From positions 10,555 to 42,780 of the forward strand of contig JAIDPF010000065.1 of NCBI GenBank assembly GCA_029062895.1: 32,226 nt of DNA, read 5' to 3'. Under the pieces are notes generated by a model. It did no database searches. It was given only the letters and a program-made list of their open reading frames with translations, and had not been told where the DNA came from. Shown piece after piece: positions 8,955-29,695 of this stretch; the stretch's first letter is position 1; every line of letters starts with the position of its first letter. A program made the position numbers and the translations under genes. The stretch comes from Lachnospiraceae bacterium. GTDB taxonomy: Bacteria > Bacillota > Clostridia > Lachnospirales > Lachnospiraceae.

Positions 8955-9191
8955 TCAACTTTTTAACAAATCAATGATCGCCTCATAGTTCTCCGGCTCA
9001 TGCGGAAAAGTGCAATTGCTGCATATTTTAATTTTATTACCGTTCTTCTCCATATACTGAGGATTTCCCGGACAGTTTTCCCTGTGATATAACGGGCAAT
9101 AACAGAACAGACAATTTAGCTCCTCCCGATCTTTATGACACGGAAAATATTCACAGGAAGTATTTTGAAAAAAACGATAATTATTGTGCAT
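8955..9191 (-). CDS. Small cysteine-rich protein (PF04071-like)
   Basis: A 78-residue protein with eight cysteines (C13, C18, C27, C30, C32, C40, C57, C60), including the dense LNCLFCYCPLY segment and a CSNC pair. This is the pattern of the 'cysteine-rich small domain' family, which I know from cobalamin loci of methanogens and Clostridia, sometimes joined to cobyrinic acid amidase genes. It probably binds zinc or an iron-sulfur cluster. The start overlaps the cbiA stop by 11 bp and has a GAGG site 7 bases upstream, indicating translational coupling with cbiA. It has no signal peptide. Function is unknown; a metal-handling or redox role in corrin synthesis is inference from context. Confidence 0.8.
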   Translation of the reverse strand: MHNNYRFFQNTSCEYFPCHKDREELNCLFCYCPLYHRENCPGNPQYMEKNGNKIKICSNCTFPHEPENYEAIIDLLKS

Positions 9192-14386: not shown

Positions 14387-15150
14387 TAATGTTCTTCCTT
14401 TGCCTTCCTGAATTCTGTTGAAAAATCGGGAGCATATAATCTTGATCTATTATAATTGTGATGCGCGATTACCTGTCCCACCAACACCAGAGCCGTTTTT
14501 GTAATCCCATACTGTGATGCTGTTTTGCCCAATGTCCCTACCGTACAGACATATGTTTCCTCATCCGGCCAGGTCGCTTTATATACAATTGCAGCCGGTG
14601 TATTCTCATCATATCCTCCGCTTATTAATTTATTATGTAGTTCCTCTATCATGCCCGCGCTAAGGTAAACAGCCATGGAGGTCTGATGTGCGGCAAAACT
14701 TTCAATACGTTCCTTTTCCGGCACTTTGGTTTTTCCTTCCATCCTTGTAATAATCAGGGACTGTGAAATTCCCGGCAGCGTATATTCCAGATTTAAAGAA
14801 GCCGCCGCGCCAAAACAGGCGCTGACCCCCGGACAGCTCTCATAATCGATGCCCAATCGGTCCAATTCATCCATCTGCTCCCGGACTGCCCCATAGATAC
14901 TTGGATCACCGCTGTGAAGCCTGACGACACATTTTCCCTCAGACGTTCCCCGGCATATGATCTTCACCACTTCCTCCAGAATCAATTTGGAACTATCATA
15001 AATTTCACAGTTTTCTCCGGCATAGTCCAAAAGTTCCTTATTAACCAGCGACCCCGCATATATGATGATATCTGCCTGTTCCAGCAGATGCATCCCCCTG
15101 ACTGTAATTAAATCTGCCGCCCCCGTTCCTGCGCCAACAAAGTAAACCAT
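14386..15150 (-). CDS. cbiF: Cobalt-precorrin-4 C11-methyltransferase CbiF
   Basis: A 254-residue tetrapyrrole methylase. It begins with VYFVGAGTGAADLITVRG and carries the SAM-site motif RLHSGDPSIYGAVREQ and the CPGVSACFGAAA segment, all typical of CbiF/CobM. It methylates C11 using S-adenosylmethionine. The start at 15150 lies 43 bp inside cbiD but is well supported by AAGGAGG 7 bases upstream, and no later in-frame start would keep the conserved N-terminal strand. The long overlap suggests tight translational coupling to cbiD. Confidence 0.95.
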   Translation of the reverse strand: MVYFVGAGTGAADLITVRGMHLLEQADIIIYAGSLVNKELLDYAGENCEIYDSSKLILEEVVKIICRGTSEGKCVVRLHSGDPSIYGAVREQMDELDRLGIDYESCPGVSACFGAAASLNLEYTLPGISQSLIITRMEGKTKVPEKERIESFAAHQTSMAVYLSAGMIEELHNKLISGGYDENTPAAIVYKATWPDEETYVCTVGTLGKTASQYGITKTALVLVGQVIAHHNYNRSRLYAPDFSTEFRKAKEEH

Positions 15151-16226
15151 CCTTCTGCCTCCTTACTTTTTGCCAATTCCCCAAATTCATTGGAATACAT
15201 AATGCAGTCGATCTGTATTTTCTTCTTTGCACGTTTCTCCAGGTAGTAACAGATTCTGCTCATGGCATAATCCATCACATCCTGCCGCTTTCCGGTCTGC
15301 TCCAGAATGCGGACAGCCTCTTCGGTAACAACGCAATCCAAAATCTGACATACCTTTTGCATTTCCACCCCATGCCTGATAGCAAACGCCGCCAGCAGTT
15401 CCATTCTACAGTCGCCTTCGGCGGAATGGGTATTCATAATTCCCCCTGCCGTCTTTATTAACTTTCCCACATGTCCGGTAAGCAGCATTTTACGAAATCC
15501 CAATTCTACTGCCATGTCTATCGTATCCCCGATAAAATTACTGCATTTCACACTTTGATCAAGATCATATCCATACTTTTTTTTCATAAACTCAAGACCG
15601 TAATTCCCGAGAGAAACCGCCACATAATCAAACCCCTCCGCTTTTCTCTGTTTCAGTTCTACCCTGATGGTATCTAATATGGCCTGATTACTCATCGGTT
15701 CCACAATTCCGCTGGTTCCCAGTATGGAAATACCGCCCACGATCCCCAGTCTGGGATTAAATGTTTGCTTTGCAAGCCGTTCTCCATCCGGCACCGAAAT
15801 TTCAACATATAAACTGCCTTTATAATCTGCAAGCTCACATACCTGCAATACTTCCCTCTCTATCATTTCCCTTGGCACATGATTGATCGCAGCCTTTCCC
15901 ACAGGCTGGTCCAAACCGGGTTTTGTCACGCGCCCTACACCCATACCGCCGTCAATATATATTTTCTCTTCCCCATCTTCTCCCAAAACAACTGTTGCAT
16001 AAACCAAAGATCCTGTGGTTACATCAGGATCGTCCCCTCCGTCCTTCACTACTGCACAACTGACTTTCGTCTCCCTGCGGGTGATATCCACAAGCTGCGC
16101 CGTATATGGAATTCCCTTTGGAGTTTCTATCGTGATCTCTGTTTTCTCTCTGCCGGTTAGGAGCATATAAGCAGCAGCCTTTGCTGCGGCGGCCGCACAG
16201 CTTCCTGTGGTAAACCCATACCGCAT
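15108..16226 (-). CDS. cbiD: Cobalt-precorrin-5B C1-methyltransferase CbiD
   Basis: A 372-residue protein, normal for the family. It starts with the diagnostic RYGFTTGSCAAAAAKAA motif and continues with a VKDGGDDPDVT segment, a GVGRVTKPGL segment and a HVGKLIKTAGG segment, all characteristic of CbiD. It transfers methyl from S-adenosylmethionine to C1 and is specific to the anaerobic pathway. GGAAGGAA lies upstream of its ATG, which follows the cbiC stop by only 2 bp. The 3' end overlaps cbiF. Confidence 0.95.
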   Translation of the reverse strand: MRYGFTTGSCAAAAAKAAAYMLLTGREKTEITIETPKGIPYTAQLVDITRRETKVSCAVVKDGGDDPDVTTGSLVYATVVLGEDGEEKIYIDGGMGVGRVTKPGLDQPVGKAAINHVPREMIEREVLQVCELADYKGSLYVEISVPDGERLAKQTFNPRLGIVGGISILGTSGIVEPMSNQAILDTIRVELKQRKAEGFDYVAVSLGNYGLEFMKKKYGYDLDQSVKCSNFIGDTIDMAVELGFRKMLLTGHVGKLIKTAGGIMNTHSAEGDCRMELLAAFAIRHGVEMQKVCQILDCVVTEEAVRILEQTGKRQDVMDYAMSRICYYLEKRAKKKIQIDCIMYSNEFGELAKSKEAEGWFTLLAQERGRQI

Positions 16227-16228
16227 TT

Positions 16229-16870
16229 TTATTCCTTCCTTTCCAGTTCATACAAAACGGCATTACAGATAGCCGCCGCCACATTGCTTCCGCCTTTCCT
16301 TCCACGATTCACGATATAGGGCACATCCGTTTTCATAATTAACTCCTTAGCGGCTTCCACATTCACAAACCCTACCGGAACCCCTATGACAAATGCCGGC
16401 TTCCATGTCATCCTCTGTATCATTTCATACAGTTGTATCAAAGCCGTAGGAGCGTTTCCTATTGCAAAAATAACAGGTTTTTCAATCATAGCAGCCATTT
16501 CCATGCTGACAGCGGCACGGGTCGTCTTACGTTCCTTCGCCAAACGTGCAATTGTTTCTTCCGCCATAAAGCAATGCACTTCGCCTCCATATTTTGCAAG
16601 ACTTTTTTTATTGACCCCTGCAAGCGCCATATTCGTATCCGTTACTATATCCGCGCCACTGACCATCAACCTTTTAATAACGTCAACAGCATTCTCTGAG
16701 TAGCAAAGCGTCTGTGTATAATCAAAATCTGCCGTGGTATGTATCACCCGCTTCGTAATCATCTCCTGTTCCTTAGGAAGTTTGATCCTCCTTTTTTCCA
16801 ATTCTTCCGAAATGATCTGAAAGCTTCTCCTTTCAATTTCCTCCGGAAGTAAATGTTCTATTTCCTTCAT
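16229..16870 (-). CDS. cbiC: Cobalt-precorrin-8 methylmutase CbiC
   Basis: A protein of about 213 residues that moves the methyl group from C11 to C12, forming cobyrinate from cobalt-precorrin-8. The catalytic histidine lies in the VIHTTADFDY motif, and the ADIVTDTNMALAG and PVGFVNVEAAKE motifs are typical. The start is uncertain: the ATG at 16870 (MKEIEHL) fits the family length, but the best Shine-Dalgarno-like run (GGAAAGG) is 13 bases upstream; in-frame ATGs at 16882 and 16909 are alternatives. Confidence 0.93.
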   Translation of the reverse strand: MKEIEHLLPEEIERRSFQIISEELEKRRIKLPKEQEMITKRVIHTTADFDYTQTLCYSENAVDVIKRLMVSGADIVTDTNMALAGVNKKSLAKYGGEVHCFMAEETIARLAKERKTTRAAVSMEMAAMIEKPVIFAIGNAPTALIQLYEMIQRMTWKPAFVIGVPVGFVNVEAAKELIMKTDVPYIVNRGRKGGSNVAAAICNAVLYELERKE

Positions 16871-16895
16871 CCCGATCCACATACCTTTCCAAATG

Positions 16896-17927
16896 TTATA
16901 TTTTTTCAACCGCCCTTAATAAGATCTCATTTTCCTCCCTGCTTTTTACGGCAATCCGGTAAAAGCCTTTGGATAATCCCCTGAAATTCCCGCAGTCCCG
17001 TATTAAAATCCCCTGCTCCAGCAGATTTTCATACAATGGTTTTTCACTATAAACCAAAATAAAATTGGCTTCACCGGGAAAGACCCACAATCCTTCCCGC
17101 TTCATCCGGTCTGATAAAAATTGACGCTCTCCTTTTATATAATGAACCGTTTCCCGGACAAAATCCGATTGCTCCGCGCAAACAATTCCCGCAGCCTGCG
17201 CAAAAACGGAAAGATTCCACTCAGGGAGATGACGTCTTATCTTATCCAACAAAAAAGCATTGCTGCCGGTCAAATATCCCAGCCTTACTCCGGGAATTGC
17301 AAAAATTTTGGTAAATGCCCGGACAATTAAGAGATTCTCATATTCGGATATCTCCGATACCATGGAAAATTCCTCTCCGCAAAATTCTATGAAGCATTCA
17401 TCCAACACCACGATTATTTTATTTTGTCTGCAAATCTGCAAAATTTTTCTCAAATACGTCTTATCCAGCAGTCTTCCGGTGGGATTATTGGGATTTCCTA
17501 AAAAGAGCACATCCGTATCCTCTGTTAATATTTCCGGAAAATCCTCTTCCGGCAAATAGTCGTTCTCTTTCCGAAACGGATAAAATACAATATTTTCACT
17601 CGCTGCGGCTGCCGCATACTCATATCCATAAAAGGATGGAACCGGAATCAATACTTTACGCGGTTGTAATCCATGTACAACTGCCATAAAAAGCTCCGAT
17701 GCACCATTCCCAAACAGCAGGGATTTCTCTGGAATCCTGAGCATACCGCCAACTGCCTTTTTTAAATCTTTTTCCGCAATATCCGGATAATTAGAGCATG
17801 CCGTTACCGTTTCATACAAAACCGACTCTACTGCTTTTGGCATTCCAAAGGGATTCACATTGATAGAGAAATCAATATCAACATGATTATGATAAATATC
17901 ACCGCCATGTATCCCGTTCACTTGCAA
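16896..17927 (-). CDS. cobD: Threonine-phosphate decarboxylase CobD (TTG start)
   Basis: A 343-residue PLP enzyme of aminotransferase class I/II. In the Salmonella naming, CobD decarboxylates L-threonine phosphate to (R)-1-amino-2-propanol phosphate, the side-chain donor used by CbiB. Visible features are the N-terminal HGGDIY and DFSINVNPFG motif, FLGNPNNPTG and the PLP lysine in FTKIFAIPGVRLGY. The start codon is probably TTG at 17927: GGGAGG lies 7 bases upstream, embedded in the end of cbiB, and there is no ATG near. A GTG at 17921 is the alternative but is spaced less well. It pairs functionally with the preceding cbiB. Confidence 0.92.
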   Translation of the reverse strand: MQVNGIHGGDIYHNHVDIDFSINVNPFGMPKAVESVLYETVTACSNYPDIAEKDLKKAVGGMLRIPEKSLLFGNGASELFMAVVHGLQPRKVLIPVPSFYGYEYAAAAASENIVFYPFRKENDYLPEEDFPEILTEDTDVLFLGNPNNPTGRLLDKTYLRKILQICRQNKIIVVLDECFIEFCGEEFSMVSEISEYENLLIVRAFTKIFAIPGVRLGYLTGSNAFLLDKIRRHLPEWNLSVFAQAAGIVCAEQSDFVRETVHYIKGERQFLSDRMKREGLWVFPGEANFILVYSEKPLYENLLEQGILIRDCGNFRGLSKGFYRIAVKSREENEILLRAVEKI

Positions 17928-17928
17928 T

Positions 17929-18915
17929 TCACATCCTCCCGAAAATGATATAGGAAACTGCCATCAATAATAAACAGGTAACTTCTCCCAGCCACGCCGT
18001 AAGATACATCAGCCGGTTGACGCGCCTGATATCCTCATATTCCACTTTTCTTAAGGCATCCCCTATATAAGGTTTCTTTACCAGCTTACCAAAATAGAAC
18101 GCATCACCAGCCAGTTGAATCCCCAGTGCTCCGGCGCAAACCGATTCCGTCTGTGCAGAATTGGGACTGGCGTGCTGGCGTCTGTCCCTCTTATATATGT
18201 AACAGGCATTCTTTCCCGAAAAACATTTCCCACTGCCAAATGCTGCTGCAATCATAAGGTATGCACTGATGCGGGCGGGAATAAAATTCACAAAATCATC
18301 CAGTTTCGCTGCCGCCCTACCGAAATACAGATATTTCTCATTCTTATATCCAACCATGGAATCCATGGTATTTACGGCTTTATAGAAAAATCCCATAACA
18401 GGACCGCCCAAAGCCGTATAGAGCATCGGGGCAATAACGCCGTCCGATGCATTTTCCGCCACCGTTTCTATGGCTGCCTTTGCTATGCCCTCTTCATCCA
18501 AAGCCGCCGTATCCCTTCCCACAATCATAGATACTGCTTCTCTTGCCGCTTCAGGTTGTCGATCTTTCAAACATCTGTACACTTTCATGCTTTCAACCTT
18601 CAGGCACTTTACCGCCAGAAGCTGATAGGTCATTATTGTCTCTACCACAATTCCCATAACGGGGTGAATCCGGTATGCCCCCAGCAATAAAAGCGCAGTT
18701 GCTGCCACTGTGATCCCCGGTACGAAAACAGCCAATACAATTCCTCTTTTTAATTTGTCCGTATCTTTTTTTATGTCTGCTTTCTCCAGCAGAGTCTTTT
18801 CCAATACCCTTATAAGATTTCCTATCAAGCGAACCGGATGCGGCCAATGATGTGGATCGCCTAAAAATAAATCTAAAAGAAATCCCAAAAAGAATGACAA
18901 AATATGATACTGCAC
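17929..18915 (-). CDS. cbiB: Adenosylcobinamide-phosphate synthase CbiB (GTG start)
   Basis: An integral membrane protein of about 328 residues that attaches aminopropanol phosphate to adenosylcobyric acid. Family motifs are FLGDPHHWPHPVRLIG near the N-terminus, VAENASDGVIAPMLY in the middle and the KAVNTMDSMVGYKN segment. Several hydrophobic helices are present, including one near each end. The start is placed at GTG 18915, 7 bases after a GGGGAG site; an upstream GTG at 18930 is also in frame but lies on that site. It overlaps the ribosome binding region of cobD. Confidence 0.93.
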   Translation of the reverse strand: MQYHILSFFLGFLLDLFLGDPHHWPHPVRLIGNLIRVLEKTLLEKADIKKDTDKLKRGIVLAVFVPGITVAATALLLLGAYRIHPVMGIVVETIMTYQLLAVKCLKVESMKVYRCLKDRQPEAAREAVSMIVGRDTAALDEEGIAKAAIETVAENASDGVIAPMLYTALGGPVMGFFYKAVNTMDSMVGYKNEKYLYFGRAAAKLDDFVNFIPARISAYLMIAAAFGSGKCFSGKNACYIYKRDRRQHASPNSAQTESVCAGALGIQLAGDAFYFGKLVKKPYIGDALRKVEYEDIRRVNRLMYLTAWLGEVTCLLLMAVSYIIFGRM

Positions 18916-18945
18916 TGCCCCACTCCCCACCGCATACTGGTGATC

Positions 18946-19596
18946 CTATAATTTTTGTATATCCGTTATTTTAAATATTTTGTTATGATGTTCTGCCATA
19001 TCCCTTATTTCATATTGCAGCTTGCACCGGTATCCTTCCCCGTTAGAAACCTGATATTCAAAATAGCTGCCACCGCCGTAACTGCTTAGTATGGACATGA
19101 TCGTACCGCCATGAACAATGATTCCTACGGGTTCGTCTTCACACATCATGTTTTTTGAAAATTGAGAAAGCAGATCCACCATCTTATACATCCCTATCCT
19201 ACATCGATGAACAAAAGTTTCCCTGCTTTCCCCTTCCGGAAAAGGAAGTGTTCCGCCGCTGTCAATCCAGTTCTGATATTGCAAATCATTTTGTAAGTCT
19301 CTATAATTTTTTCCTTCAAAGATCCCAAAATCAATTTCTTCCCATTCCTGAATCATGACCGGTTTCTTTTCCGGATAGAGGATCTTTGCTGTCTCCACGC
19401 ATCGTTTCATGGGACTTGAAAACACACATCCTACTTCAGGATAGTAACCTGTATTCTTTGCCTCTAAAAGCCGGCTTATGCCTTCACTTGCAAGCGCCTC
19501 ATCCGTTTTACCAAGATAGCGGCGTTCCCTGTTGGATTCGGCAGCCCCATGTCTGATCATAACCAGATCTATTTGATTTTTTGACCGATTCCACAT
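18946..19596 (-). CDS. cobC: Histidine phosphatase, probable alpha-ribazole phosphatase CobC
   Basis: A 216-residue protein of the histidine (phosphoglycerate mutase-like) phosphatase family. The phosphorylated His16 lies in MIRHGAAES, and other core residues are in SSPMKRCVETA and IIVHGGTI. In this operon the likely substrate is alpha-ribazole 5'-phosphate or adenosylcobalamin 5'-phosphate, removing the phosphate left after CobT/CobS action. The first 28 bp overlap the short cobU-like gene, and GAGGTGG lies about 10 bases upstream of the ATG. The family also contains unrelated phosphatases, so the specific role rests on context. Confidence 0.85.
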   Translation of the reverse strand: MWNRSKNQIDLVMIRHGAAESNRERRYLGKTDEALASEGISRLLEAKNTGYYPEVGCVFSSPMKRCVETAKILYPEKKPVMIQEWEEIDFGIFEGKNYRDLQNDLQYQNWIDSGGTLPFPEGESRETFVHRCRIGMYKMVDLLSQFSKNMMCEDEPVGIIVHGGTIMSILSSYGGGSYFEYQVSNGEGYRCKLQYEIRDMAEHHNKIFKITDIQKL

Positions 19597-19973: not shown

Positions 19974-20744
19974 TCAACTACACATATTGAATACGGAAGC
20001 GGCTACTACGATGCTTCCTTCACAGATTAATACAAAATATCCTGCCGTATCACCGGTAATTCCCCCAAATTCTTTTTTACAGCGGTAACCATAATACGCA
20101 AAGGAACATAACGCCGCAGCCACTATGACTCCTCCGGCTTTCCATGACTGGAACAGCATAAAGCCGATGCAGAAAACTGTCTGCAGATACAATGTCCCCT
20201 TAACAATTTTTTTATGGGCATGATCCGCAAATAAAAAGAGAAGACCCTCCTTTTTAGCAAGGGGAAATGTTACTGCACTGATTCCGCACAGGCAACGGGA
20301 TAAATAAAATCCAGCACAGAATATGAGAAGCAGCTGTTTATCCCGAAGTTCTGAAAACGCCCCCAGATAAATCAGTCCGTATAATGCCAGCATGATAACG
20401 GAAAACGCCCCCAAATGAGGATCTTTCATAATCTCTAATTTCCTGTCCTTCGACTGGTAGGAATGAAATGCATCCATCGTATCCATGAACCCGTCTACAT
20501 GAATCCCTCCCGTAACCAGCAGCGGAATCACCATTCCGATTACGGTATCACATAATAATCCAATCCCATACCTGATACACAGCTTATTCCAAAAATAAAC
20601 GAAAACTCCTATGATCAGTCCAATCCAAGGGAAAAAGCACAGTACATATTTCATATCCTCTTCTTTCCACTCAAACTGCGGCATGGGGATCCGGGAATAC
20701 ATGGAAAATGATATGATCAAAGATTTTAATATCCTCATAATCAT
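19974..20744 (-). CDS. cobS: Adenosylcobinamide-GDP ribazoletransferase CobS
   Basis: A 256-residue membrane protein that joins adenosylcobinamide-GDP to alpha-ribazole (phosphate) to complete the lower ligand. The family motif GGIHVDGFMDTMDAF is present, followed by KDPHLGAFSV, and several hydrophobic helices cover most of the rest. The ATG at 20744 has AGAAAGG 7 bases upstream. It lies between the two CobU-like genes, consistent with a shared nucleotide-loop assembly role. Confidence 0.94.
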   Translation of the reverse strand: MIMRILKSLIISFSMYSRIPMPQFEWKEEDMKYVLCFFPWIGLIIGVFVYFWNKLCIRYGIGLLCDTVIGMVIPLLVTGGIHVDGFMDTMDAFHSYQSKDRKLEIMKDPHLGAFSVIMLALYGLIYLGAFSELRDKQLLLIFCAGFYLSRCLCGISAVTFPLAKKEGLLFLFADHAHKKIVKGTLYLQTVFCIGFMLFQSWKAGGVIVAAALCSFAYYGYRCKKEFGGITGDTAGYFVLICEGSIVVAASVFNMCS

Positions 20745-20759
20745 CCTGATGCCTTTCTG

Positions 20760-21332
20760 TTATTCAGCAATATCTGCATCATATATACAGAGCGGAATAC
20801 CTACAACTACTTCTACTACTTTATCTGCCATGACTGCAAGCTGCTCATTAATACTCCCTAATGCTTTTATATATTCCATGGTATCTTCATCATAACGGAT
20901 ACCGTCTTCGAATACGTTATTGGATACGATCACCAGATGTTTTAGTTTTTTGTTTAACAGCTGGATTTCCCTGATGATCTTATCCGTTACCACCTTATGG
21001 GACTGCGGTATTTTATCAATAAACATCTCATTGGCAGTCAGATTGGACATACATTCTAACAAGGCAGTATTTTCTGCTTTAACATCTGAATCGGTCATCT
21101 CCATTTTTTGTAATACTCCGCTGATCGACAACGGCTGTTCTATCGTAATAAACCCCTTGCCGTGTCTCATCATCCGATGCCGTTCAATCCTGGCCTGCGT
21201 TTCTTTATCTACATCCGAAGCCTGCATGGTAGCCAGATAATATTTTTTATTTTCTTTCGCTATGTCCATGGTGTATTGCTCCGCATATGCGGATTTTCCG
21301 CTGCCGCTTCCTCCCAAAATCAGTGTCATCAT
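20760..21332 (-). CDS. cobU: Adenosylcobinamide kinase/guanylyltransferase CobU (divergent C-terminus)
   Basis: A 190-residue protein. It begins with the P-loop GGSGSGKS (7-14) and has the RIERHR motif (49-53) that holds the guanylylated histidine (His52) in the known enzyme. CobU phosphorylates adenosylcobinamide and then transfers GMP to it. The C-terminal part is unusual: where other CobU proteins have an EVGxGIVP motif, this one reads SNNVFEDGIRYDE, followed by a recognisable ADKVVEVVVGIP end. The missing motif is kept in the short CobU-like protein encoded downstream. The start has only a weak ribosome binding site, and MM gives two possible first codons. Confidence 0.88.
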   Translation of the reverse strand: MMTLILGGSGSGKSAYAEQYTMDIAKENKKYYLATMQASDVDKETQARIERHRMMRHGKGFITIEQPLSISGVLQKMEMTDSDVKAENTALLECMSNLTANEMFIDKIPQSHKVVTDKIIREIQLLNKKLKHLVIVSNNVFEDGIRYDEDTMEYIKALGSINEQLAVMADKVVEVVVGIPLCIYDADIAE

Positions 21333-21357: not shown

Positions 21358-22452
21358 TTATGGAATTCTTTGATACTGTTCTATCCGAAAGTCCGAAAAC
21401 GACGCGCCGCTATGATATATTTGAAGCGCCATATCCAGTAAAGCCATCATCATGACAGCGCCTGTCCCTTCTCCCAAAGCCATTTCTCCGACAATGACCG
21501 GTTCTATTTCCAATGCTCCCATAAGTTTTGCCACTGCGGGTTCCTTTCCCTTATGCGAAGGAATTAAATATTCCTTTGTCCCAGGGACAATCCGCTCTGC
21601 AAGAAGGGCCGCTGTCATACTGATCACCCCGTCCAATACGATTGGTATATGATATACCGCGCCGCCAATGCAGACACCCGCAAGACCTGCTATATCAAGT
21701 CCACCGACTGTAGCTAAAATTGCCACCGCATCTTTATTTTTCAATTCATACTTATTAACTGCCTCTTTGATCACCTGTCTTTTACGAACAAGCCCTTCCT
21801 CCGTAAGCCCTGCTCCCCGGCCGGTAACCTCGTCAGCTTCACACTTTAACAAGGCGGTCGCAACCGCACTGCTTGTTGTTGTATTTCCAATCCCCAACTC
21901 TCCTGTTGCTGCAATATGATACCCTCTCATTTTGCATTCATATACCATATCAATTCCAACTGCAATTGCCCGGATCGCTTCTTCCTCCGTCATGGCCGGT
22001 TTTTGTCTGAAATTTTCCGTACCGCGCCTGATCTTTCTATTCCATACGCCTTCGATCCGTTCATTACCGTTAATACCGATATCTACAGGTATGACGTCTG
22101 CCCCAATCACTTCTGCCAATTTGCATACCGCCGATTGATTTTTGGCCATGGCCTTTACCACCGCAGTTGTAACCTCCTGCCCTGACTGACTTACTTTTTC
22201 CTGAACGATTCCGTTATCTGCACACATGACAATAACCGCTTTTCTGGAAAGATCGATCTTATCTGAGCCAGTAATGCCCCCGATCTGTGCCGTCAATGTT
22301 TCAAATCTCCCCATGCCGTCAATGGGTTTGGCAATGGCATCCCACTGATCACGCACCCGTTTATTGATCTCACGATCCGGTTTTTCTGCCCTTAACTGTT
22401 CCAATTCATCTCTTGTATATTGATTCCATACGAGTCTCTCCAAGCATTCCAT
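21358..22452 (-). CDS. cobT: Nicotinate-nucleotide-dimethylbenzimidazole phosphoribosyltransferase CobT
   Basis: A 364-residue enzyme that makes alpha-ribazole phosphate from a lower-ligand base and nicotinate mononucleotide. Motifs include [18 protein letters not shown], the [13 protein letters not shown] loop and the catalytic glutamate in GEGTGAVM. The start at 22452 is 47 bp inside cbiP but has GGAGGGAA 6 bases upstream, so it is well supported. No benzimidazole-synthesis gene (bluB, bza) is in the window, so the base may be imported or made elsewhere. Confidence 0.95.
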
Positions 22453-23911
22453 AGATTCCCTCCATATCCAGATGCAGTCTTAATGTATCGGCCAATAGAT
22501 CAAACTGTCTTTCCCTAAAGGTTTTATAATCATAAGCCGCATCTCCTTCCAGCGTAACTCCCTTTTTCCCAGCCAATGCCCGTACAACATCCATAGCAAT
22601 ATTTCCCTGATCAAATAAACCATGAACATAAGAGCCGTATATGTTTTCATTGATACCGCTTACCACTATCTTGTGTTCATCAATACTCAGCTGCTCTTTC
22701 TTATGGACTACTGTCTGCCCCATATGTATTTCATATCCATGAAACTTATACCCCGCAATGATTCCCAGCAATCCTTGCAGATCATTGATCACCCCGTCTG
22801 TCTGACAGCGTTTCTTTTCCTGTTTTAATACGGTGGAAACCGGCAGAAGCTCCATTCCCCGAATACTGCCTCCTTCCTCCACACCTTCCGGATCTGATAT
22901 TTCATATCCCAGCATCTGATACCCACCGCAGATTCCAAAAACAGGAATCTCCTGCGCAAGTTTTTTTACAACAGTTTCCAATCCGTTTTGCCGCATCCAC
23001 TTTAAGTCTCCCATGGTATTTTTGCTACCCGGCAAAAATATCATATCCGGGTGATGCAGCTCACTGATCGACGTTATATAACGCACCGACACATTGGGAA
23101 TCGCTTCAAAAACATTAAAATCCGTGAAATTGGATATTCTGGGATAACGTATTACCGCAATATCAATCAATCCCTGTTGTCTTCCCTCAAACCTTTCCGT
23201 CAGACTATCTTCGTCCTCCAGTGATAAGTCCATGTACGGGACCACCCCAGTCACAGGAACTTTTCCTTTTTCCTCCAACATTTCTATTCCCGGATCAAGA
23301 ATAGATTTGTCACCCCGGAATTTATTGATGACCAGACCTTTCACTCTCCTTTTTTCTTTTTCATCCAGCAGCATCAAAGTTCCCAAAAGCTGTGCAAATA
23401 CACCGCCTCTGTCAATATCTCCCACCAAAAGTACAGGTGCGTCTATCATCTCCGCAAGTCCCATGTTCACAATATCATTTTGTTTTAAATTGATTTCTGC
23501 CGGGCTTCCGGCTCCTTCTACCACAATGATATCCGTAAATTCTTCCAACTTATGAAATGCCTTTTTAATCAAAGGAACCAGTTGTTTTTTATAGGCAAAG
23601 TAATCCTTTGCACTCATGTTGCCCAGCACTTCTCCGTTAACGATGACCTGAGATCCTGTATGGTTCAGCGGTTTTAATAAGATGGGATTCATGCAGACCA
23701 TCGGCTCTATTCCCGCCGCCTCCGCCTGCATGACCTGCGCCCTTCCCATTTCCCGTCCCTCCGACGTGATGTAGGAATTTAACGCCATATTCTGTGATTT
23801 GAACGGTGCTGTACGATACCCATCCTGTCTGAAGATCCTGCACAATCCAGCCGTCAGAATACTCTTTCCGGCACCGGACATCGTTCCCTGTATCATGATT
23901 ACTTTTGCCAT
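22406..23911 (-). CDS. cbiP: Adenosylcobyric acid synthase CbiP (CobQ)
   Basis: A 501-residue glutamine-dependent amidase that amidates four carboxylates (b, d, e, g) of adenosylcobyrinate a,c-diamide. The N-terminal domain starts with [13 protein letters not shown] and contains SQNMALNSY and [12 protein letters not shown], diagnostic for CobQ. The glutamine amidotransferase domain has the Cys in [11 protein letters not shown] and the His in [10 protein letters not shown]. It starts 3 bp after the ABC ATPase gene and overlaps cobT at its 3' end. Confidence 0.96.
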
Positions 23912-23914
23912 ATG

Positions 23915-25033
23915 TCATCCAAACCTTTTTGGTAATATGATTTCAATTTCTTTGTTTTCCTTTTTTGCATATTCAAGCAATTCCCTGTTGGCAGACTCCA
24001 ATGTGCCAAAGGATTCTTTACAGCAGATCACTTTCCTGCAAATATCCACTCTTTTTTTTGCAGTCTCTAGCAGCATATCTGTAATTGGTTCAAAACTTTC
24101 TGCTGCCACACAACAGGAGGCCAACGCTTTTGCCACGGGATAGTCAAGATCGTTACAAAACAAAATCCCCGCATCGAACGCTATTCCCTGACGCTGTAGT
24201 CTCCGGTAAACATTTCTACCGGTTCCCCCGCCCGCTATGACAAAAACTTCCGCATTTCCTTTCACCGCATCCAGTTCCATATTGCCGTTTTTTTCGTTAT
24301 AACTACCTGATGATATCCGAAACAGCTTGGAGATATATCCGTCTTCAAAGATCTCCTCAGGACTGCCAAACCGGTCAACATACTTCCCGTTGATACACAG
24401 TATTTTATCCGAAACCCTTTCTGCCAGTTCCAGTTCATGAAGGGACATAATCACGGTCAATCCCCTTTCCTTCCTCATTTGCTGGAGGATCGACAAAAAT
24501 TCTAATTTATATTTCACATCCAAAAAAGAAGTGGGTTCATCAAGAACGATGATCTCCGGTTCCTGACAGATGGCGCGGGCAAGCATGACCCGCTGTCTTT
24601 GTCCGTCGCTGACCCGGGTAAAATCCTGATCCTTAATATCTGTTACATGGACTAACTCCATAGCTTCTCTGACCACCCTGCGGTCATCTTCTGTCAAGAT
24701 GCCAAAATGCCCCGTATATGGATAACGTCCCGTAGCCGTTACATCCTCACAGGTCATCATTTCCGTATGCATCCTTTCTGTCAGCACTACCGCCATTTTC
24801 TGGGAAAATTCTTCTCCGGATAGATTTGCTACATTATGCTGATCCAGATAAACAACGCCTCCTGTCAAGGCGATCTGTCTTGCAATGCTTTTCAGGACAG
24901 TTGTTTTTCCAGCGCCGTTTGGTCCAATCAGAGTTAAGATCTGACCTTTTTCCAGACGGATCTCTATATTCTCTATCAGGGGATGCTTCTGATACCCTAC
25001 GCTCATCTTCTCTGTGAAAAAATAATATCCCAT
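23915..25033 (-). CDS. btuD: Corrinoid/tetrapyrrole ABC transporter ATPase with extra C-terminal domain
   Basis: A 372-residue protein. Residues about 1-250 are a standard FecE/BtuD ATPase: Walker A GPNGAGKT, Q-loop, signature VSDGQRQRVMLARA, Walker B EIIVLDEPTS and the switch His in MSLHELE. Residues about 260-372 form an added domain that opens with VFVIAGGGTGRN, like a Rossmann nucleotide-binding turn, and has AGILFCNDLDYPVAKALA and repeated Cys (CC) pairs. I recall similar tails on clostridial ATPases of this type but no assigned function. The start overlaps the permease stop as TGATG. The transported compound is inferred from the riboswitch operon, so cobalamin, cobinamide or another tetrapyrrole are all possible. 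Confidence 0.88.
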   Translation of the reverse strand: MGYYFFTEKMSVGYQKHPLIENIEIRLEKGQILTLIGPNGAGKTTVLKSIARQIALTGGVVYLDQHNVANLSGEEFSQKMAVVLTERMHTEMMTCEDVTATGRYPYTGHFGILTEDDRRVVREAMELVHVTDIKDQDFTRVSDGQRQRVMLARAICQEPEIIVLDEPTSFLDVKYKLEFLSILQQMRKERGLTVIMSLHELELAERVSDKILCINGKYVDRFGSPEEIFEDGYISKLFRISSGSYNEKNGNMELDAVKGNAEVFVIAGGGTGRNVYRRLQRQGIAFDAGILFCNDLDYPVAKALASCCVAAESFEPITDMLLETAKKRVDICRKVICCKESFGTLESANRELLEYAKKENKEIEIILPKRFG

Positions 25034-26055
25034 CAGAAAATTTTCTCCCTATTTCTCTTTATCATGATCCATATCACAACCGGCGCTCCAAAAATAGCTG
25101 TCATTGTACTGATGCTGATTTCCGTAGGAGCAAGAAGATTTCTTGCCAACAGATCACAAAACAGGCAGAATACACCCCCGCCCAGAAAACATGCGGGGAT
25201 CATCAAAATCGGCATTGTTGTCCCCAGCATGCTTTTTACTATGTGCGGCGCCGCCAGTCCCACAAAAGAAATCGGACCCGCATACGCTACGATACATGCC
25301 GATAAGATACTGGATAATATCACAAGCTCCGTACGAAACAGCCTGATATTAATTCCCATATTTTGGGCATAAGCATCTCCCAACTGATATGCGCTGAGCG
25401 GTTTTGCCATCAGAAAAACTACTGTAAAGGCAGCTGCAATTACACAGGTCATGACAGCCACATGATCCCAGGTCATACCGGAAAAACTTCCTCTTGACCA
25501 GTTGTGGAGATTCACAATATCCGCGTCATCTGCAAAGGTAACCACAAGTTCTGTAATCGCCGAACAGATATATCCGATCATGACACCGCTCACAACTAAC
25601 ATCGCCATGTTATTGACCTTACGAGACATCAGAAGGACAAACCCCATGGATATCATTGCTCCCAGAAAAGCGGCAAAAATCAGCGCCATCGAAGTAACCT
25701 TTATGGAACGTCCCATCAAAAAAACCATAACCAATGCAACAATCATTTTAGCGCCGGAGGAAATCCCCAGCACAAAAGGTCCTGCAATGGGATTATGAAA
25801 AAAAGACTGTAGAAGATAGCCCGCCAATGCCAATGCGCCTCCAAGGATCAACGCGGCAAGCGTTCTCGGCAGGCGAATATCCCATAAAATCCTTTCCATT
25901 GTCTGATCGATTTTCTCTCCCAGCAGATTTCGTAAAATATCCCCTAAGGATATCTTTACACTGCCAATACATATATTAGCGGCAAAAAGCCCAATGACAG
26001 CCATTATAAGAAGTAAAAATGCCGTTATATATCTTATCTTTCTATCTTGTTGCAT
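25033..26055 (-). CDS. btuC: FecCD/BtuC-type ABC transporter permease
   Basis: A 340-residue polytopic membrane protein with about ten hydrophobic helices. The motif LALAGYLLQSFFHNPIAGP and the GISSGAKM that follows are the FecCD/BtuC signature, and the C-terminal FVGLAAPHIVKSM motif contacts the ATPase. It starts with GGGAGG 5 bases upstream, overlapping the end of the binding-protein gene's stop region. It should import the substrate delivered by the preceding lipoprotein, with the downstream ATPase. Confidence 0.93.
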   Translation of the reverse strand: MQQDRKIRYITAFLLLIMAVIGLFAANICIGSVKISLGDILRNLLGEKIDQTMERILWDIRLPRTLAALILGGALALAGYLLQSFFHNPIAGPFVLGISSGAKMIVALVMVFLMGRSIKVTSMALIFAAFLGAMISMGFVLLMSRKVNNMAMLVVSGVMIGYICSAITELVVTFADDADIVNLHNWSRGSFSGMTWDHVAVMTCVIAAAFTVVFLMAKPLSAYQLGDAYAQNMGINIRLFRTELVILSSILSACIVAYAGPISFVGLAAPHIVKSMLGTTMPILMIPACFLGGGVFCLFCDLLARNLLAPTEISISTMTAIFGAPVVIWIMIKRNREKIF

Positions 26056-26065
26056 CCCAGCCTCC

Positions 26066-27202
26066 CTACTCCAAATGGAACAGGAATCTCATTTCCTCTT
26101 CCCCTGTACCGCAGACCATATGATGTATGTCTTCAATCATATATCCGATTGACATAGACTGCTGATACATATCATTGGTGGTACACCAGACATTTCCTTC
26201 CTGAACAGCCTTAAAATCCGCTAAAAGAGAACATTTATCAAGCAGTTCCTCTATGGATGCAACACCGCCGTCTATGGAACTGTTATATATAATAAAATCA
26301 GCATCTTTTGCACTGCTGTAAAATTCTTCCACCTGCATATTTAAAGTAGATCTGGCGGATTCCGGGTCCCCTAACTGATCAAATATATACCTTCCTCCCG
26401 CCAGTTCAATCATTTTGGGAATATAATCGGAACTCTGACGAACCTGTACAAGACCGTTTGAAGTAATATAGAAAAAGGCAACCGTCAAATCCGTCTTTTC
26501 GTCTGCCGTTACATCTTCCAAAATTTCCAACTGTTCCACAAACACACGCTCCGCTTCCTCTTCCTTTCCAAGCAAAGCTCCAAAGAACTTGATCCACTCC
26601 ACTCTTCCAAGCGGATGGGGCTCGTAACTGGAATATTCGATCATAACAGGTATTCCAAAATCATTTAACATTTCAATCACTTCCGGCGAATGGGAAATCA
26701 TCATATTTTCTATAACAAGGGAACAATTTCCCGACATGATCAATTCATAATCCGGCTGATTATATTTACCGGCATAAAGCATACTCCCATTTTCCATAGC
26801 CTCTTGCGCCGCCTCAATATGCCAACCGTCTTCTTTCTGTCCGGAAAACGTAATGGTATCTATGGCATCCAATTGATCAAACATATCCATCACTGCAGAT
26901 GCTACCAGGTAAAGATTCCTGATCGGCCGCTGTAATATAATCACATCCTCCGCCAATCCCCCGGGAATTTCTTTGTTCTCCGGAACCACCAGAATTTCAG
27001 TACCATCTTTAACTGTCAGCAGGGTATAGCCGCCTTCAAAATAATCTACCGTAAAATTCTCTGCATACTGTAAATCCATACTGCCGGTCTTTTCCAATTC
27101 TACTGCCTGGGCTTTGGAAGAAGGACTGCTGCAGCCTCCAAGCCACAGCAATCCCACACCAACTAAGCAGCATATTGTTATTATCCCTATTCTTTTCCAC
27201 AT
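26066..27202 (-). CDS. btuF: ABC transporter substrate-binding lipoprotein (BtuF-like)
   Basis: A 378-residue exported protein with a lipoprotein signal: MWKR, a hydrophobic stretch and the lipobox LGGC, with the lipidated Cys at residue 24. The mature part is of the periplasmic-binding-protein type used for iron-siderophore and B12 (PF01497-like), with segments such as DADFIIYNSS and a final lobe near NVWCTTNDMYQQS. It is unusually Met/Glu-rich and divergent from enteric BtuF. The ribosome binding site is weak. Its partner permease and ATPase follow in the operon. The ligand cannot be read from the sequence. Confidence 0.87.
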   Translation of the reverse strand: MWKRIGIITICCLVGVGLLWLGGCSSPSSKAQAVELEKTGSMDLQYAENFTVDYFEGGYTLLTVKDGTEILVVPENKEIPGGLAEDVIILQRPIRNLYLVASAVMDMFDQLDAIDTITFSGQKEDGWHIEAAQEAMENGSMLYAGKYNQPDYELIMSGNCSLVIENMMISHSPEVIEMLNDFGIPVMIEYSSYEPHPLGRVEWIKFFGALLGKEEEAERVFVEQLEILEDVTADEKTDLTVAFFYITSNGLVQVRQSSDYIPKMIELAGGRYIFDQLGDPESARSTLNMQVEEFYSSAKDADFIIYNSSIDGGVASIEELLDKCSLLADFKAVQEGNVWCTTNDMYQQSMSIGYMIEDIHHMVCGTGEEEMRFLFHLE

Positions 27203-27248
27203 TGACCTACTGCACCGCCTTTGTACATTTGCAAACCTTAACCGCCGT

Positions 27249-28064
27249 TTACTCTAAAGATTTTACAGTATCAGAATGAAATGTTAGCGTATATTCAATT
27301 TCATGTGGCGAACTCATTGCTACCGTATCACCAATCACGTCAATGGGAACATCAAATGCCCCTATGGGAATCTGAAATACGGAATTACCTTCCGTATTGA
27401 CCGGTAAATATTTTTCACCATCTACGATCATATAATCATAATTGGAGCTGCTCCACTCCAGTGTCGCCATCACATTTCCTTCCGCCACATCAATTACCAC
27501 AGGAGACAAGATCACTGCTTTTCCACTTCCGCCTTCAAAGGTAATCTCCATGCTGTATACACCATCTTCCAGACGCTCTCCTATTTCTGTCTGTTCCCCA
27601 TCGGTAACGGGTATCGGATTACAAACGCTTACCTTGTGGTCATACCAAACTTCCTTTGTTCCTACCAAAGCCAGATCAAACTCCGCATCCAGAAAAGGAA
27701 CCGGCACATCAAATCCATTGACCTCTTCTGTCATTCCATCACTGTATGTAACCGTATCCACCGTAGGCGAAAGCAGTTCTGCGCCTTCTTTCTGTGCATC
27801 TTCAGCAAGTCCCGGATAAAGATTTAAAACATTTTGGGAAGGTAAAGAAATATGAATGACCATTTCTCCGTTTTCAACAGTCAGTGTACCTTTTCCATCA
27901 CAGGCCTCGTTTACATGAAACATGCTGTTGTCCGTATGAAACTCTGCCATATATACTCCGTCAGGCAGCGCTGCCGCCTCCGGTTCCTGTACGCTGTCTG
28001 TATCTTTGCAGCCGCTAAACAATATGCATAACAGCAGCATTAAAACCATTACAATTTTTTTCAT
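27249..28064 (-). CDS. Lipoprotein with two beta-rich repeats, function unknown
   Basis: A 271-residue lipoprotein: signal MKKIVMVLM..., lipobox LFSGC, lipidated Cys19. The mature region has two related repeats, about residues 35-150 and 167-265. Both open with DGVY, contain a strand ending in a VENGEMVIHI/VAEGNVMATL segment and close with a hydrophobic FD/FL, IGDT/VGTK, then EI.YTL/WYDHKVS strand. The second repeat contains a Tyr-rich SSSNYDYMIVDGEKY stretch. The layout is loosely like NEAT haem-binding domains, but I cannot confirm this. The start is set at 28064 by GGGAGAA and the signal peptide; the frame extends to 28088. It lies between cbiK and the ABC transporter, so it may bind a tetrapyrrole or metal at the surface. 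Confidence 0.8.
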   Translation of the reverse strand: MKKIVMVLMLLLCILFSGCKDTDSVQEPEAAALPDGVYMAEFHTDNSMFHVNEACDGKGTLTVENGEMVIHISLPSQNVLNLYPGLAEDAQKEGAELLSPTVDTVTYSDGMTEEVNGFDVPVPFLDAEFDLALVGTKEVWYDHKVSVCNPIPVTDGEQTEIGERLEDGVYSMEITFEGGSGKAVILSPVVIDVAEGNVMATLEWSSSNYDYMIVDGEKYLPVNTEGNSVFQIPIGAFDVPIDVIGDTVAMSSPHEIEYTLTFHSDTVKSLE

Positions 28065-28080
28065 ATTTAATTTCTCCCTG

Positions 28081-29259
28081 TTATTCATTTATAACTTCAG
28101 CTGTGTGTTCTACATAAATCTGCTGAATGACATCAATGGAGCCGAGACCTGTGATCTGCACATCTACGCTTTCAAAATTCCCGGAATCTTTAAACATGCT
28201 GATCCATGAATCCTCATCATCTCCAGCCATATCATTATTGGCATGGTCTCCTGCCACAACCATAAATGGACGAAGAATCACTCTCGTATAGCCCGCCTGT
28301 GCTACGGCATCTATCACTGCTTCACAGGAGGTTTCCTCTGGTTCTCCCTCTACCGTACCAATAAATACATTATTGTATCCAAGTTCTGCCATTTGTGTCT
28401 GCATCTGACTATATGACACTTTTGCCGTATGAGATGTACCATGTCCTAAAAATACAAATGCAACTCCGTCTGCATCTGCCATATCCAGACTGTCATATCC
28501 CGCATCCCTGACTGCAGCCTCTGTAAGCGCTATTGCAACGGCCTCTTTATCATCATTAATCACAGTAGCATCTGCACCAACCGCGCCAAGCAGCGGTTCC
28601 GCTACTCTGACAGTTTCAAACTGATTCCGATAAGCTTCAACAGCTTCCATCAATTCATCATACTCTGCACCATGCATCAAATGAGTTGGTTGTATTACCA
28701 AATTCTTTACTCCATTTGACACTGCCCGCTCCAGCGCCTGCTCCATATTATCAATATGCTCCCCGTCACGTGCCTGTATGTGATTGATGATGATCTGCGC
28801 CGTAAACGCTCTTCTCACTGTCCATCCCGGGTTTGCCGCCTGTATCGCATCCTCAATTCCTTTAATATCACTGACTCTGCTGTCATTAAAGGAAGTTCCA
28901 AAACTAACTACCAGAATTTCATTTTCACCAATACCGTCCTGATTACGTGGATCATCTTGGGAAGCATCACCGGTATCCCTGCCGAAATAATCCGGATCTG
29001 CATTTTCACCTTCCACCAACTCTTTCTGGACATCCGTCAAAGCATCCCATGCCGCTTTTGCCTGTGTACATTGTTCGTCCGTATTTTCTGTTCTCCTCTG
29101 GACATAGATTGCATCGATCAGCGCCGCAACTTCGTCAGCAGCTTCCTGATCTGTCATTGTATTTCCGCCAGAAGTCTCCGTTCCCGTTGAACAACCTGCC
29201 AGTGCCAATGAACAAGCCATAACACCGGTTAATAATGCAATACTCCATTTCTTTTTCAT
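28081..29259 (-). CDS. cbiK: Surface-anchored anaerobic cobaltochelatase CbiK (lipoprotein)
   Basis: A 392-residue protein with a lipoprotein signal (lipobox LAGC, Cys23), a helical spacer (about 37-85, including the AWDALTDVQKELVEG motif typical of clostridial surface proteins) and a CbiK domain (about 113-390). CbiK motifs are LVVSFGTSFNDSR, IQPTHLMHGAEYD (His193), FLGHGTSHTAKVSY (His273, His277) and the PFMVVAGDHANNDMAGDD segment. In the known cytoplasmic enzyme, two histidines bind cobalt and insert it into sirohydrochlorin. Here the domain would sit outside the cell, like the periplasmic CbiK of Desulfovibrio. It is the first gene of the operon, 102 bases after the leader terminator, with GAGG before the ATG. 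Confidence 0.9.
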   Translation of the reverse strand: MKKKWSIALLTGVMACSLALAGCSTGTETSGGNTMTDQEAADEVAALIDAIYVQRRTENTDEQCTQAKAAWDALTDVQKELVEGENADPDYFGRDTGDASQDDPRNQDGIGENEILVVSFGTSFNDSRVSDIKGIEDAIQAANPGWTVRRAFTAQIIINHIQARDGEHIDNMEQALERAVSNGVKNLVIQPTHLMHGAEYDELMEAVEAYRNQFETVRVAEPLLGAVGADATVINDDKEAVAIALTEAAVRDAGYDSLDMADADGVAFVFLGHGTSHTAKVSYSQMQTQMAELGYNNVFIGTVEGEPEETSCEAVIDAVAQAGYTRVILRPFMVVAGDHANNDMAGDDEDSWISMFKDSGNFESVDVQITGLGSIDVIQQIYVEHTAEVINE

Positions 29260-29400: not shown

Positions 29401-29504
29401 TACACAAAATAAATCTTAAGGAAATCCGTCATTACAGACATCCTTCCCAAAAATTCAACCGTACAACCAGTTACTCGTGGCTTGAAACAAATGTTTCCGT
29501 ACAA

Positions 29505-29676
29505 CAGCAAGGCAGGTCTCCCGGCTTAAAGATCATCGCATTGACCGTCTTCCCAGTTTCCCAGTGACATATTGATCTCTGCTCCCTAATTACGGTGACG
29601 AGTTCGTACAGGATTTTCACCTGTTTCCCTTTTCATCGAAGCTAACCATATTTCTGATTACTCCGACACCTTACTG
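29505..29676 (-). ncRNA. Cobalamin riboswitch
   Basis: On the minus strand, the region contains the conserved core AAAAGGGAA, GGTGAAAATCC and CACCGTAA, then the B12 box AAGCCGGGAGACCTGCC (29511-29527). The closing P1 stem pairs CAGTAAGG (29669-29676) with CCTTGCTG (29505-29512) using one G-U pair. The order and near-consensus sequence make this a clear adenosylcobalamin-type riboswitch. It should turn off the whole downstream operon when B12 is abundant, through the terminator at 29361-29400. Confidence 0.95.
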
Positions 29677-29695
29677 TACATATTCAATTGTTTGT

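What the first reader, a model, noticed from the sequence alone, without database searches (positions are those of the whole stretch)
26066..29259. Surface-anchored chelatase, repeat lipoprotein and ABC importer at the head of a B12 riboswitch operon
CbiK has a clear lipobox and a surface-protein spacer, so its active site should face outward, while the rest of the corrin pathway is cytoplasmic. The next gene is a two-repeat lipoprotein, followed by the binding protein, permease and ATPase. Seen: signal peptides, gene order, intact CbiK histidine motifs. Known: periplasmic CbiK of Desulfovibrio, and chelatases that can run in reverse on haem. Inference: the module may capture or remodel metallo-tetrapyrroles or load cobalt outside the cell before uptake. 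No cytoplasmic chelatase (CbiX or soluble CbiK) is in the window.
Basis: partly seen in the sequence, partly recalled or inferred. Interest (0 to 1): 0.75.

Follow-up and report, generated by a model that had tools for sequence, protein, structure and literature searches.

The report
Surface machine for salvaging B12 precursors
Many gut bacteria that cannot start vitamin B12 synthesis seem to carry a cell-surface set of proteins (a cobalt-inserting enzyme, haem-binder-like relay domains and an importer) that may pick up half-made B12 rings from outside, put cobalt in, and bring them in for completion; the proposed substrate is not yet tested.

The parts
29494..29688 (-). Cobalamin riboswitch (RF00174), about 235 nt upstream of cbiK
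   Evidence: cmscan 102.6 bits, gathering 31.5
28081..29259 (-). Exported lipoprotein CbiK-type class II chelatase: signal peptide/lipobox C23, spacer, CbiK domain 115-390
   Evidence: PF06180 E 3.5e-70; PDB relatives 1qgo 6e-35, FetB 9b86 3e-33, Desulfovibrio CbiK 2xvx 1e-29; H273 and H339
27249..28088 (-). Lipoprotein with two NEAT-type domains, N1 (about residues 34-152) and N2 (about 163-268, counted from the likely start at 28064)
26066..27202 (-). Lipoprotein substrate-binding protein of the ABC importer (PF01497)
   Evidence: PF01497 E 8.8e-23; no PDB sequence match at 1e-3
25033..26055 (-). FecCD/BtuC-type permease
   Evidence: PF01032 E 3.3e-82; best NCBIfam BtuC NF003001 2.4e-65, below its curated cut-off
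23915..25033 (-). ABC ATPase with about 120-residue C-terminal extension; best family match is the corrinoid ABC ATPase
   Evidence: NF007082 E 6.3e-59, residues 9-344, below its curated cut-off
22406..23911 (-). CbiP cobyric acid synthase
   Evidence: NF001989 627 bits, cut-off 273
21358..22452 (-). CobT
   Evidence: TIGR03160 above cut-off
20760..21332 (-). CobU
   Evidence: PF02283 E 4e-32
19974..20744 (-). CobS
   Evidence: PF02654 E 4e-49
18946..19596 (-). CobC-like alpha-ribazole phosphatase
   Evidence: TIGR03162 E 9.6e-28, below cut-off
17929..18930 (-). CbiB
   Evidence: TIGR00380 above cut-off
16896..17927 (-). CobD-type aminotransferase
   Evidence: TIGR01140 265 bits, cut-off 290.55
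16229..16909 (-). CbiC
   Evidence: PF02570 E 3.5e-75
15108..16226 (-). CbiD
   Evidence: TIGR00312 above cut-off
14386..15150 (-). CbiF
   Evidence: TIGR01465 above cut-off
13322..14386 (-). CbiG
   Evidence: PF01890 and PF11760
12592..13359 (-). CbiH, in the proposed route the first ring enzyme that this genome encodes
   Evidence: TIGR01466 above cut-off; no CbiL match over cut-off in the genome
10541..12721 (-). CbiJ-CbiE-CbiT fusion
   Evidence: TIGR00715, TIGR02467, TIGR02469 above cut-off
9181..10569 (-). CbiA
   Evidence: NF002204 above cut-off

Best explanation
The head of the operon is a surface salvage apparatus for early B12 ring precursors. Lipid-anchored CbiK meets a metal-free or wrongly metallated isobacteriochlorin outside the membrane and inserts cobalt. 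The two NEAT domains (N1, then N2) carry the Co-ring to the binding protein, and the BtuCD-like importer brings it in. Cytoplasmic CbiH, F, G, D, JET, C, A, P, B and the loop enzymes finish the cobamide, and the cobalamin riboswitch switches the set off when B12 suffices. In genomes with CbiL the imported ring could be (Co-)sirohydrochlorin. In genomes without CbiL, such as this one, it should already carry the C20 methyl group (factor III level). Shown: gene content, signal peptides, folds by prediction, gene order, fusions, riboswitch, missing upstream genes and their association with exported CbiK. Inferred: the ligand, the direction of metal exchange, the hand-off order and the import.
Against: Exported CbiK also occurs in 31 of 73 CbiD+ HemC+ genomes, in 12 of them as the only CbiK, so export does not require salvage. 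Of the 47 CbiD+ genomes without HemC, 7 show no CbiK and 3 a non-exported one. Five CbiD+ HemC+ genomes lack CbiL (003, 029, 048, 053, 192), so CbiL may be replaced by an unknown enzyme and 'factor III' is unsure. On the exported-CbiK tree HemC status is somewhat clustered (18 changes against 23 in shuffles; 15 of 500 shuffles as low), so genomes are not fully independent. NEAT domains of the top structural matches are haem carriers, and the characterised exported CbiK relative FetB is called haem-binding. The genomes are mostly drafts. A profile of the lipoproteins found no NEAT entry in the PDB by sequence, and the window member is below Pfam's NEAT cut-off. No ligand has been tested.
Confidence: 0.6

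Rival explanations
1. The module handles haem or other porphyrins: surface CbiK swaps or removes the metal (as proposed for P. gingivalis FetB/IhtB), NEAT domains carry haem or the freed porphyrin, and the importer takes it up for iron or porphyrin.
For: The NEAT structures that match best include many haem complexes. FetB is the second-best PDB match of the window CbiK, 3.2e-33. Papers report FetB-dependent Mn-PPIX and propose reverse ferrochelatase activity for IhtB (passages).
Against: 31 of 32 loci scanned have a cobalamin riboswitch. 68 of 69 exported-CbiK genomes have CbiD. The operon continues into cobamide genes, the transporter's best matches are BtuC and the corrinoid ATPase, and the NEAT YxxxY haem motif (recalled) is not kept. 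Haem iron supply would not explain the link with loss of HemC, CobA and siroheme synthase.
Confidence: 0.17
2. The module is an uptake system for finished or late corrinoids (cobinamide, cobamides); the exported CbiK acts as a binder or has another role.
For: B12 riboswitch, BtuCD-like transporter, nucleotide-loop genes in the same operon.
Against: Late corrinoid uptake needs neither a chelatase with both catalytic histidines nor the ring-building genes that the same operon keeps, and does not explain why non-exported CbiK is absent in 44 of 47 CbiD+ genomes without HemC.
Confidence: 0.13
3. The missing upstream genes are replaced by unrelated enzymes; the cell makes its own sirohydrochlorin and exported CbiK serves another purpose, or the ring is exported, cobalt-loaded outside and re-imported.
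For: Exported-only CbiK exists in 12 of 73 CbiD+ HemC+ genomes. Five CbiD+ HemC+ genomes lack CbiL. Shelton et al. also name an unknown pathway as the alternative.
Against: HemC, CobA and siroheme synthase are mostly missing together: of 47 CbiD+ genomes without HemC, 3 have CobA and 5 a strong PF13241 match. In Shelton et al. C. scindens and C. [quoted passage not shown] these are not the organism here.
Confidence: 0.06
4. The absences are assembly gaps in draft genomes.
For: The window genome is a draft of 115 contigs.
Against: 97.9% complete; the same-genus genome rated 100% complete lacks HemC, CobA and CbiL as well; 28 of 34 higher-quality CbiD+ genomes without HemC show the pattern.
Confidence: 0.04

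Closest known systems
Isd-type NEAT haem relay of Gram-positive bacteria (IsdX1, IsdC, IsdH with an ABC importer)
   Same: Exported NEAT-type domains in series with a lipoprotein binding protein and a FecCD-type ABC importer; long multi-NEAT proteins sit beside some importers
   Different: An exported chelatase is part of the set; B12 riboswitch control; linked to the corrin pathway; YxxxY haem motif not kept; ligand unknown
FetB of Porphyromonas gingivalis (the same protein as IhtB, recalled)
   Different: Different phylum; described in the passages I read as haem-binding or metal-exchanging; I did not look for NEAT domains there
Periplasmic CbiK of Desulfovibrio vulgaris (2xvx/2xvz)
   Different: Nearly complete de novo gene set reported for that organism; NEAT domains not looked for there
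Tetrapyrrole precursor salvagers (Shelton et al., PMC6461909)
   Same: Upstream steps missing, corrin and loop genes kept, mainly Firmicutes
   Different: That work defines the phenotype and tests ALA; the parts I read give no import or capture machinery for precursors
BtuFCD corrinoid importer
   Same: Binding protein, permease and ATPase families
   Different: Below the curated BtuC and corrinoid-ATPase cut-offs; linked to CbiK and NEAT parts

Membership tests
CbiK class II chelatase (PF06180) | CbiK domain | tested here: met
   236.8 bits, cut-off 26.2
CbiK class II chelatase (PF06180) | Two catalytic histidines in the C-terminal half (Salmonella His145, His207) | tested here: met
   H273 and H339 aligned
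CbiK class II chelatase (PF06180) | NCBIfam equivalog cut-off for sirohydrochlorin cobaltochelatase | tested here: not met
   NF047852 180.5 bits, cut-off 400
CbiK class II chelatase (PF06180) | Cobalt insertion into sirohydrochlorin | not testable with these tools
   needs an assay
NEAT domain (PF05031) | NEAT beta-sandwich fold, N2 | tested here: met
NEAT domain (PF05031) | NEAT beta-sandwich fold, N1 | tested here: inconclusive
   related to N2 by profile; the window's weak Pfam NEAT match lies in N1; two-domain rows to IsdH and IsdB span about 34-265 but at rmsd 15-17; not folded alone
NEAT domain (PF05031) | Pfam gathering score | tested here: not met
   window member 14.4 bits, cut-off 32.8; NEAT listed for 26 of 29 homologues at E up to 1, best 3.1e-8
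NEAT domain (PF05031) | YxxxY haem motif in the last strand (recalled; not present in every NEAT domain) | tested here: not met
   N1 WYDHKV and N2 PHEIEY in the window; W140, Y141, D142, H143, H254, E255, Y258 invariant in 29 rows; the equivalence of positions is by eye
Isd-type haem uptake | NEAT proteins with an ABC importer | tested here: met
Isd-type haem uptake | Iron (Fur) control | not tested
   a cobalamin riboswitch was found in 31 of 32 loci; Fur boxes not searched
Isd-type haem uptake | Haem as ligand, haem-degrading enzyme | not tested
   no assay; IsdG-type enzyme not searched
BtuFCD importer | Curated BtuC and corrinoid-ATPase models | tested here: inconclusive
   best hits, but 220.9 of 334 bits and 200.1 of 537 bits
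Tetrapyrrole precursor salvager (Shelton et al.) | Upstream tetrapyrrole genes missing | tested here: met
   HemC and CobA absent, only weak PF13241 hits; HemA, HemL, HemB and HemD not searched
Tetrapyrrole precursor salvager (Shelton et al.) | Complete corrin ring and loop pathway | tested here: inconclusive
   ring and loop genes in the window, but no CbiL match over cut-off in the genome
Tetrapyrrole precursor salvager (Shelton et al.) | Makes cobamide only with a precursor | not testable with these tools
   needs culture

The most novel reading that the evidence does not exclude
B12 synthesis can be split between cells, and the cobalt step can take place on the outside of the receiving cell: salvagers take up isobacteriochlorins lost by B12 makers, metallate them on the surface with CbiK, and pass the Co-ring through a NEAT relay (N1 to N2 to SBP) into an importer. 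This would be a NEAT system for a B12 precursor rather than haem, and the capture and import machinery of tetrapyrrole precursor salvagers. The P. gingivalis CbiK relative FetB/IhtB might then also serve B12.
Probability: 0.45. Interest if true: 0.9.

Novelty: new variant of a known kind. Interest (0 to 1): 0.8.

Why it matters
A third of the family sample (69 of 200 genomes) carries the exported chelatase with its NEAT domains. If right, the module is the machinery by which gut bacteria live on unfinished B12 rings; it moves the metal-insertion step outside the cell, widens NEAT domains beyond haem, and makes the question of what precursor salvagers import directly testable. It also warns that 'B12 producer' calls based on late corrin genes, or on the mere presence of cbiK, can be wrong for gut Lachnospiraceae.

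Tried and rejected
Second CbiK/CbiX elsewhere in the genome: rejected; CobN and HemH not searched. Repeat lipoprotein as an unknown fold: rejected. Pfam alone gave only a sub-threshold NEAT hit, and a profile of 29 lipoproteins found no NEAT chain in the PDB by sequence. One lineage behind the pattern: rejected, though some clustering remains. Draft gaps: unlikely. The promoter/terminator scan was within chance (3 promoter-like against 1.5 +/- 1.2, 1 terminator-like against 0.5 +/- 0.7). Paper searches listed nothing that I recognised as this module in Clostridia; they cover open-licence PubMed Central only, two of them listed 25 of 4,139 and 15 of 1,415 papers, and I judged by listings plus the passages named below.

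Corrections and limits of the census. Tables were transcribed by hand into scripts. 'CbiL present' means at least 112 bits, including a few under the curated cut-off; 'Met8' means PF13241 E of about 1e-14 or better; CobA means over the curated cut-off; NEAT-L means at least 60 bits. CbiK classes were first set by match length and open frame, then corrected after looking at N-termini: G186 moved to non-exported (CbiD-CbiK fusion), and 16 genomes of the 'other' class (G002, 013, 048, 049, 053, 066, 079, 105, 119, 135, 136, 140, 147, 160, 172, 174) moved to exported. The first signal-peptide rule was loose and also fired on five rows that are cytosolic by eye (L157, L182, L191, L197, L198). A stricter rule over the 68 exported genomes whose N-termini I hold (all but G063) gives 64 lipoprotein and 3 other signal peptides; G080 was missed and set by eye. 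The tree used yet another rule, which mislabelled L009, L125, L148 and L021. Most short CbiK (300 aa or less) of HemC+ genomes were classed by length alone, so the HemC+ row is less certain than the HemC- row, in which every CbiK was looked at. Three rows (G062, G186, the non-exported copy of G063) and L021 were left out of the tree. Fisher tests treat genomes as independent. In one search two further in-family genomes were included: G311 has HemC, G420 lacks it.

Papers: PMC6461909 (passages, section 13, section 15 part 1), PMC7689651, PMC13402209, PMC13227078, PMC545781 (passages), PMC6173696 (one passage). PMC13065792 is not held. Recalled, from no call: cobalt need of CbiL/CbiH, factor II/III release by cobalt-starved producers, the YxxxY motif, the RsmI guess, FetB being IhtB, and the original reports on IhtB and on the P. 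gingivalis corrin pathway.
Full report
WHAT IS THERE. On the minus strand, a cobalamin riboswitch (29494-29688) precedes cbiK (28081-29259), a lipoprotein gene (27249-28088), a PF01497 binding protein (26066-27202), a FecCD/BtuC permease (25033-26055) and an ABC ATPase with a C-terminal extension (23915-25033). The same strand continues through cbiP, cobT, cobU, cobS, a partial cobU-like gene, cobC, cbiB, cobD, cbiC, cbiD, cbiF, cbiG, cbiH, cbiJET and cbiA. CbiK has a signal peptide with lipobox Cys23, then a spacer of about 90 residues, then a full CbiK domain (236.8 bits, cut-off 26.2) with both catalytic histidines, H273 and H339.

THE GENOME LACKS UPSTREAM STEPS. In the whole genome (97.9% complete) PF06180 finds one CbiK and PF01903 only the same gene. 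PF00590 finds CbiF, CbiH and CbiE of the window and one more gene on another contig, probably RsmI (recalled); CbiL and CobA models find only CbiH and CbiF, under cut-off. HemC is absent. PF13241 gives only weak hits (best 3.7e-8). HemA, HemL, HemB, HemD, CobN and HemH were not searched. Thus ring synthesis appears to start at CbiH. The same-genus genome G004 (rated 100% complete) lacks HemC, CobA and CbiL as well.

FAMILY CENSUS. In 200 genomes of the family (cross-tabulated) 120 have CbiD. Of the 47 of these without HemC, 37 have exported CbiK, in each case the only CbiK; 3 have a non-exported CbiK and 7 none; 44 of 47 lack CobA. Of the 73 with HemC, 60 have a non-exported CbiK, 31 an exported one, and 12 only the exported one. 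Fisher: non-exported CbiK against HemC 2.7e-17; exported-only against HemC loss 1.1e-11. In the 165 genomes of higher quality: 28 of 34 against 12 of 65 exported-only, p 8e-10. Of the 37, 17 have CbiL; another 17 have none of CobA, siroheme synthase and CbiL. Exported CbiK is tied to corrin synthesis: 68 of 69 have CbiD, the exception being G063 at 89% completeness. A stricter signal-peptide check finds 64 lipoprotein and 3 other signal peptides among 68 of the 69 genomes, with one more set by eye. On a tree of 69 exported CbiK rows HemC status needs 18 changes (16-18 in bootstraps; 23 in shuffled labels, 15 of 500 shuffles as low), at least 10 forced by well-supported branches: not one clade, though somewhat clustered. 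Exported and cytosolic CbiK lie largely in separate parts of the tree: 6 label changes among 101 rows against 28.6 in shuffles, some of the 6 due to mislabelled or long-branch rows.

OUTSIDE THE FAMILY. In 289 genomes of the class (the window's genome included), 11 have the NEAT pair at 1e-15: 4 in the family and 7 in 4 other families. Of these 7, 6 lack HemC, in 3 families; four of the six belong to one genus. Contexts were read for all 7: 6 show CbiK and NEAT domains by SBP, permease, ATPase and cbi genes, and one is cut by a contig end. All 6 of those CbiK have signal peptides.

REGULATION. 32 of the 36 other HemC-lacking, exported-CbiK loci were scanned with Rfam; 31 have a cobalamin riboswitch on the gene's strand, L148 has none. 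Four loci were not scanned (L123, L124, L140, L152).

HOW IT MOST LIKELY WORKS. CbiL and CbiH of the anaerobic pathway act on cobalt-bearing rings (recalled). If the only CbiK/CbiX is outside, cobalt must go in outside, or without that enzyme, or arrive with the ring. The simplest account: CbiK on the outer face metallates scavenged isobacteriochlorins, the NEAT domains hold and pass the Co-ring, and the BtuCD-like importer takes it in. Cobalt-starved B12 makers are said to release metal-free factors II and III (recalled), which would make such rings available. For this genome the absence of CbiL points to a C20-methylated ring; but five CbiD+ HemC+ genomes also lack CbiL, so an unknown C20 methylase is possible. 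In G186 the CbiK is a cytosolic CbiD-CbiK fusion next to a three-NEAT protein, SBP and importer, as if the metal step had moved inside while capture and import stayed: this fits a ring as the cargo.

RIVALS. Haem or porphyrin handling is the main one: FetB of P. gingivalis, a CbiK relative, is described with haem binding and Mn-PPIX formation, and IhtB (the same protein, recalled) with proposed reverse ferrochelatase activity. Yet P. gingivalis is also named as lacking the steps to precorrin-2, so the same link may hold there; that is a suggestion, not a result. Uptake of late corrinoids does not need ring genes or a chelatase. Hidden replacement of upstream enzymes and draft gaps are treated in the Rival explanations section.

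NOVELTY. The parts belong to known kinds (CbiK, NEAT, PF01497/FecCD importer). The combination and the link with precursor salvage are not in any paper I found with ten searches of open-licence papers. I rate it a new variant of a known kind (an Isd-like relay with an exported chelatase, probably for B12 precursors). It is not filed as a member of the Isd haem-uptake system: ligand untested, haem motif not kept.

Noticed in passing
window 23915-25033: The ABC ATPase carries about 120 residues after the ATPase domain; its best NCBIfam match, the corrinoid ABC ATPase NF007082, covers residues 9-344.
   Followed up: partly
window 19569-19952: A 127-aa protein matching only the C-terminal part of CobU sits between CobS and CobC, beside a full CobU.
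   Followed up: no
L217, L219-L222, L226, L227, L077: Long proteins (about 730-1810 aa) with three to eight NEAT-like domains sit beside SBP, permease and ATPase genes, mostly without cbiK: possible cell-wall capture proteins.
   Followed up: partly
L134/L220 (G186), L197 (G059), L198 (G008), G081:C2: Fusions of non-exported CbiK with other pathway enzymes: CbiD-CbiK, CbiH-CbiK, CbiK with CbiL, HemC with CbiK in one open frame.
   Followed up: no
G003, G029, G048, G053, G192: CbiD+ HemC+ CobA+ genomes without a CbiL match: a different C20 methylase, or import of a later ring.
   Followed up: no
L170 (G102): Tandem duplicate of exported cbiK, one copy fused to N1.
   Followed up: no
L149:1385-1512: A Clostridiales-1 RNA (RF01699) lies between the cobalamin riboswitch and cbiK.
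   Followed up: no
window 30719-31588: Protein with a DUF6033 match and a Lys/Ala-rich C-terminal half, function unknown.
   Followed up: no
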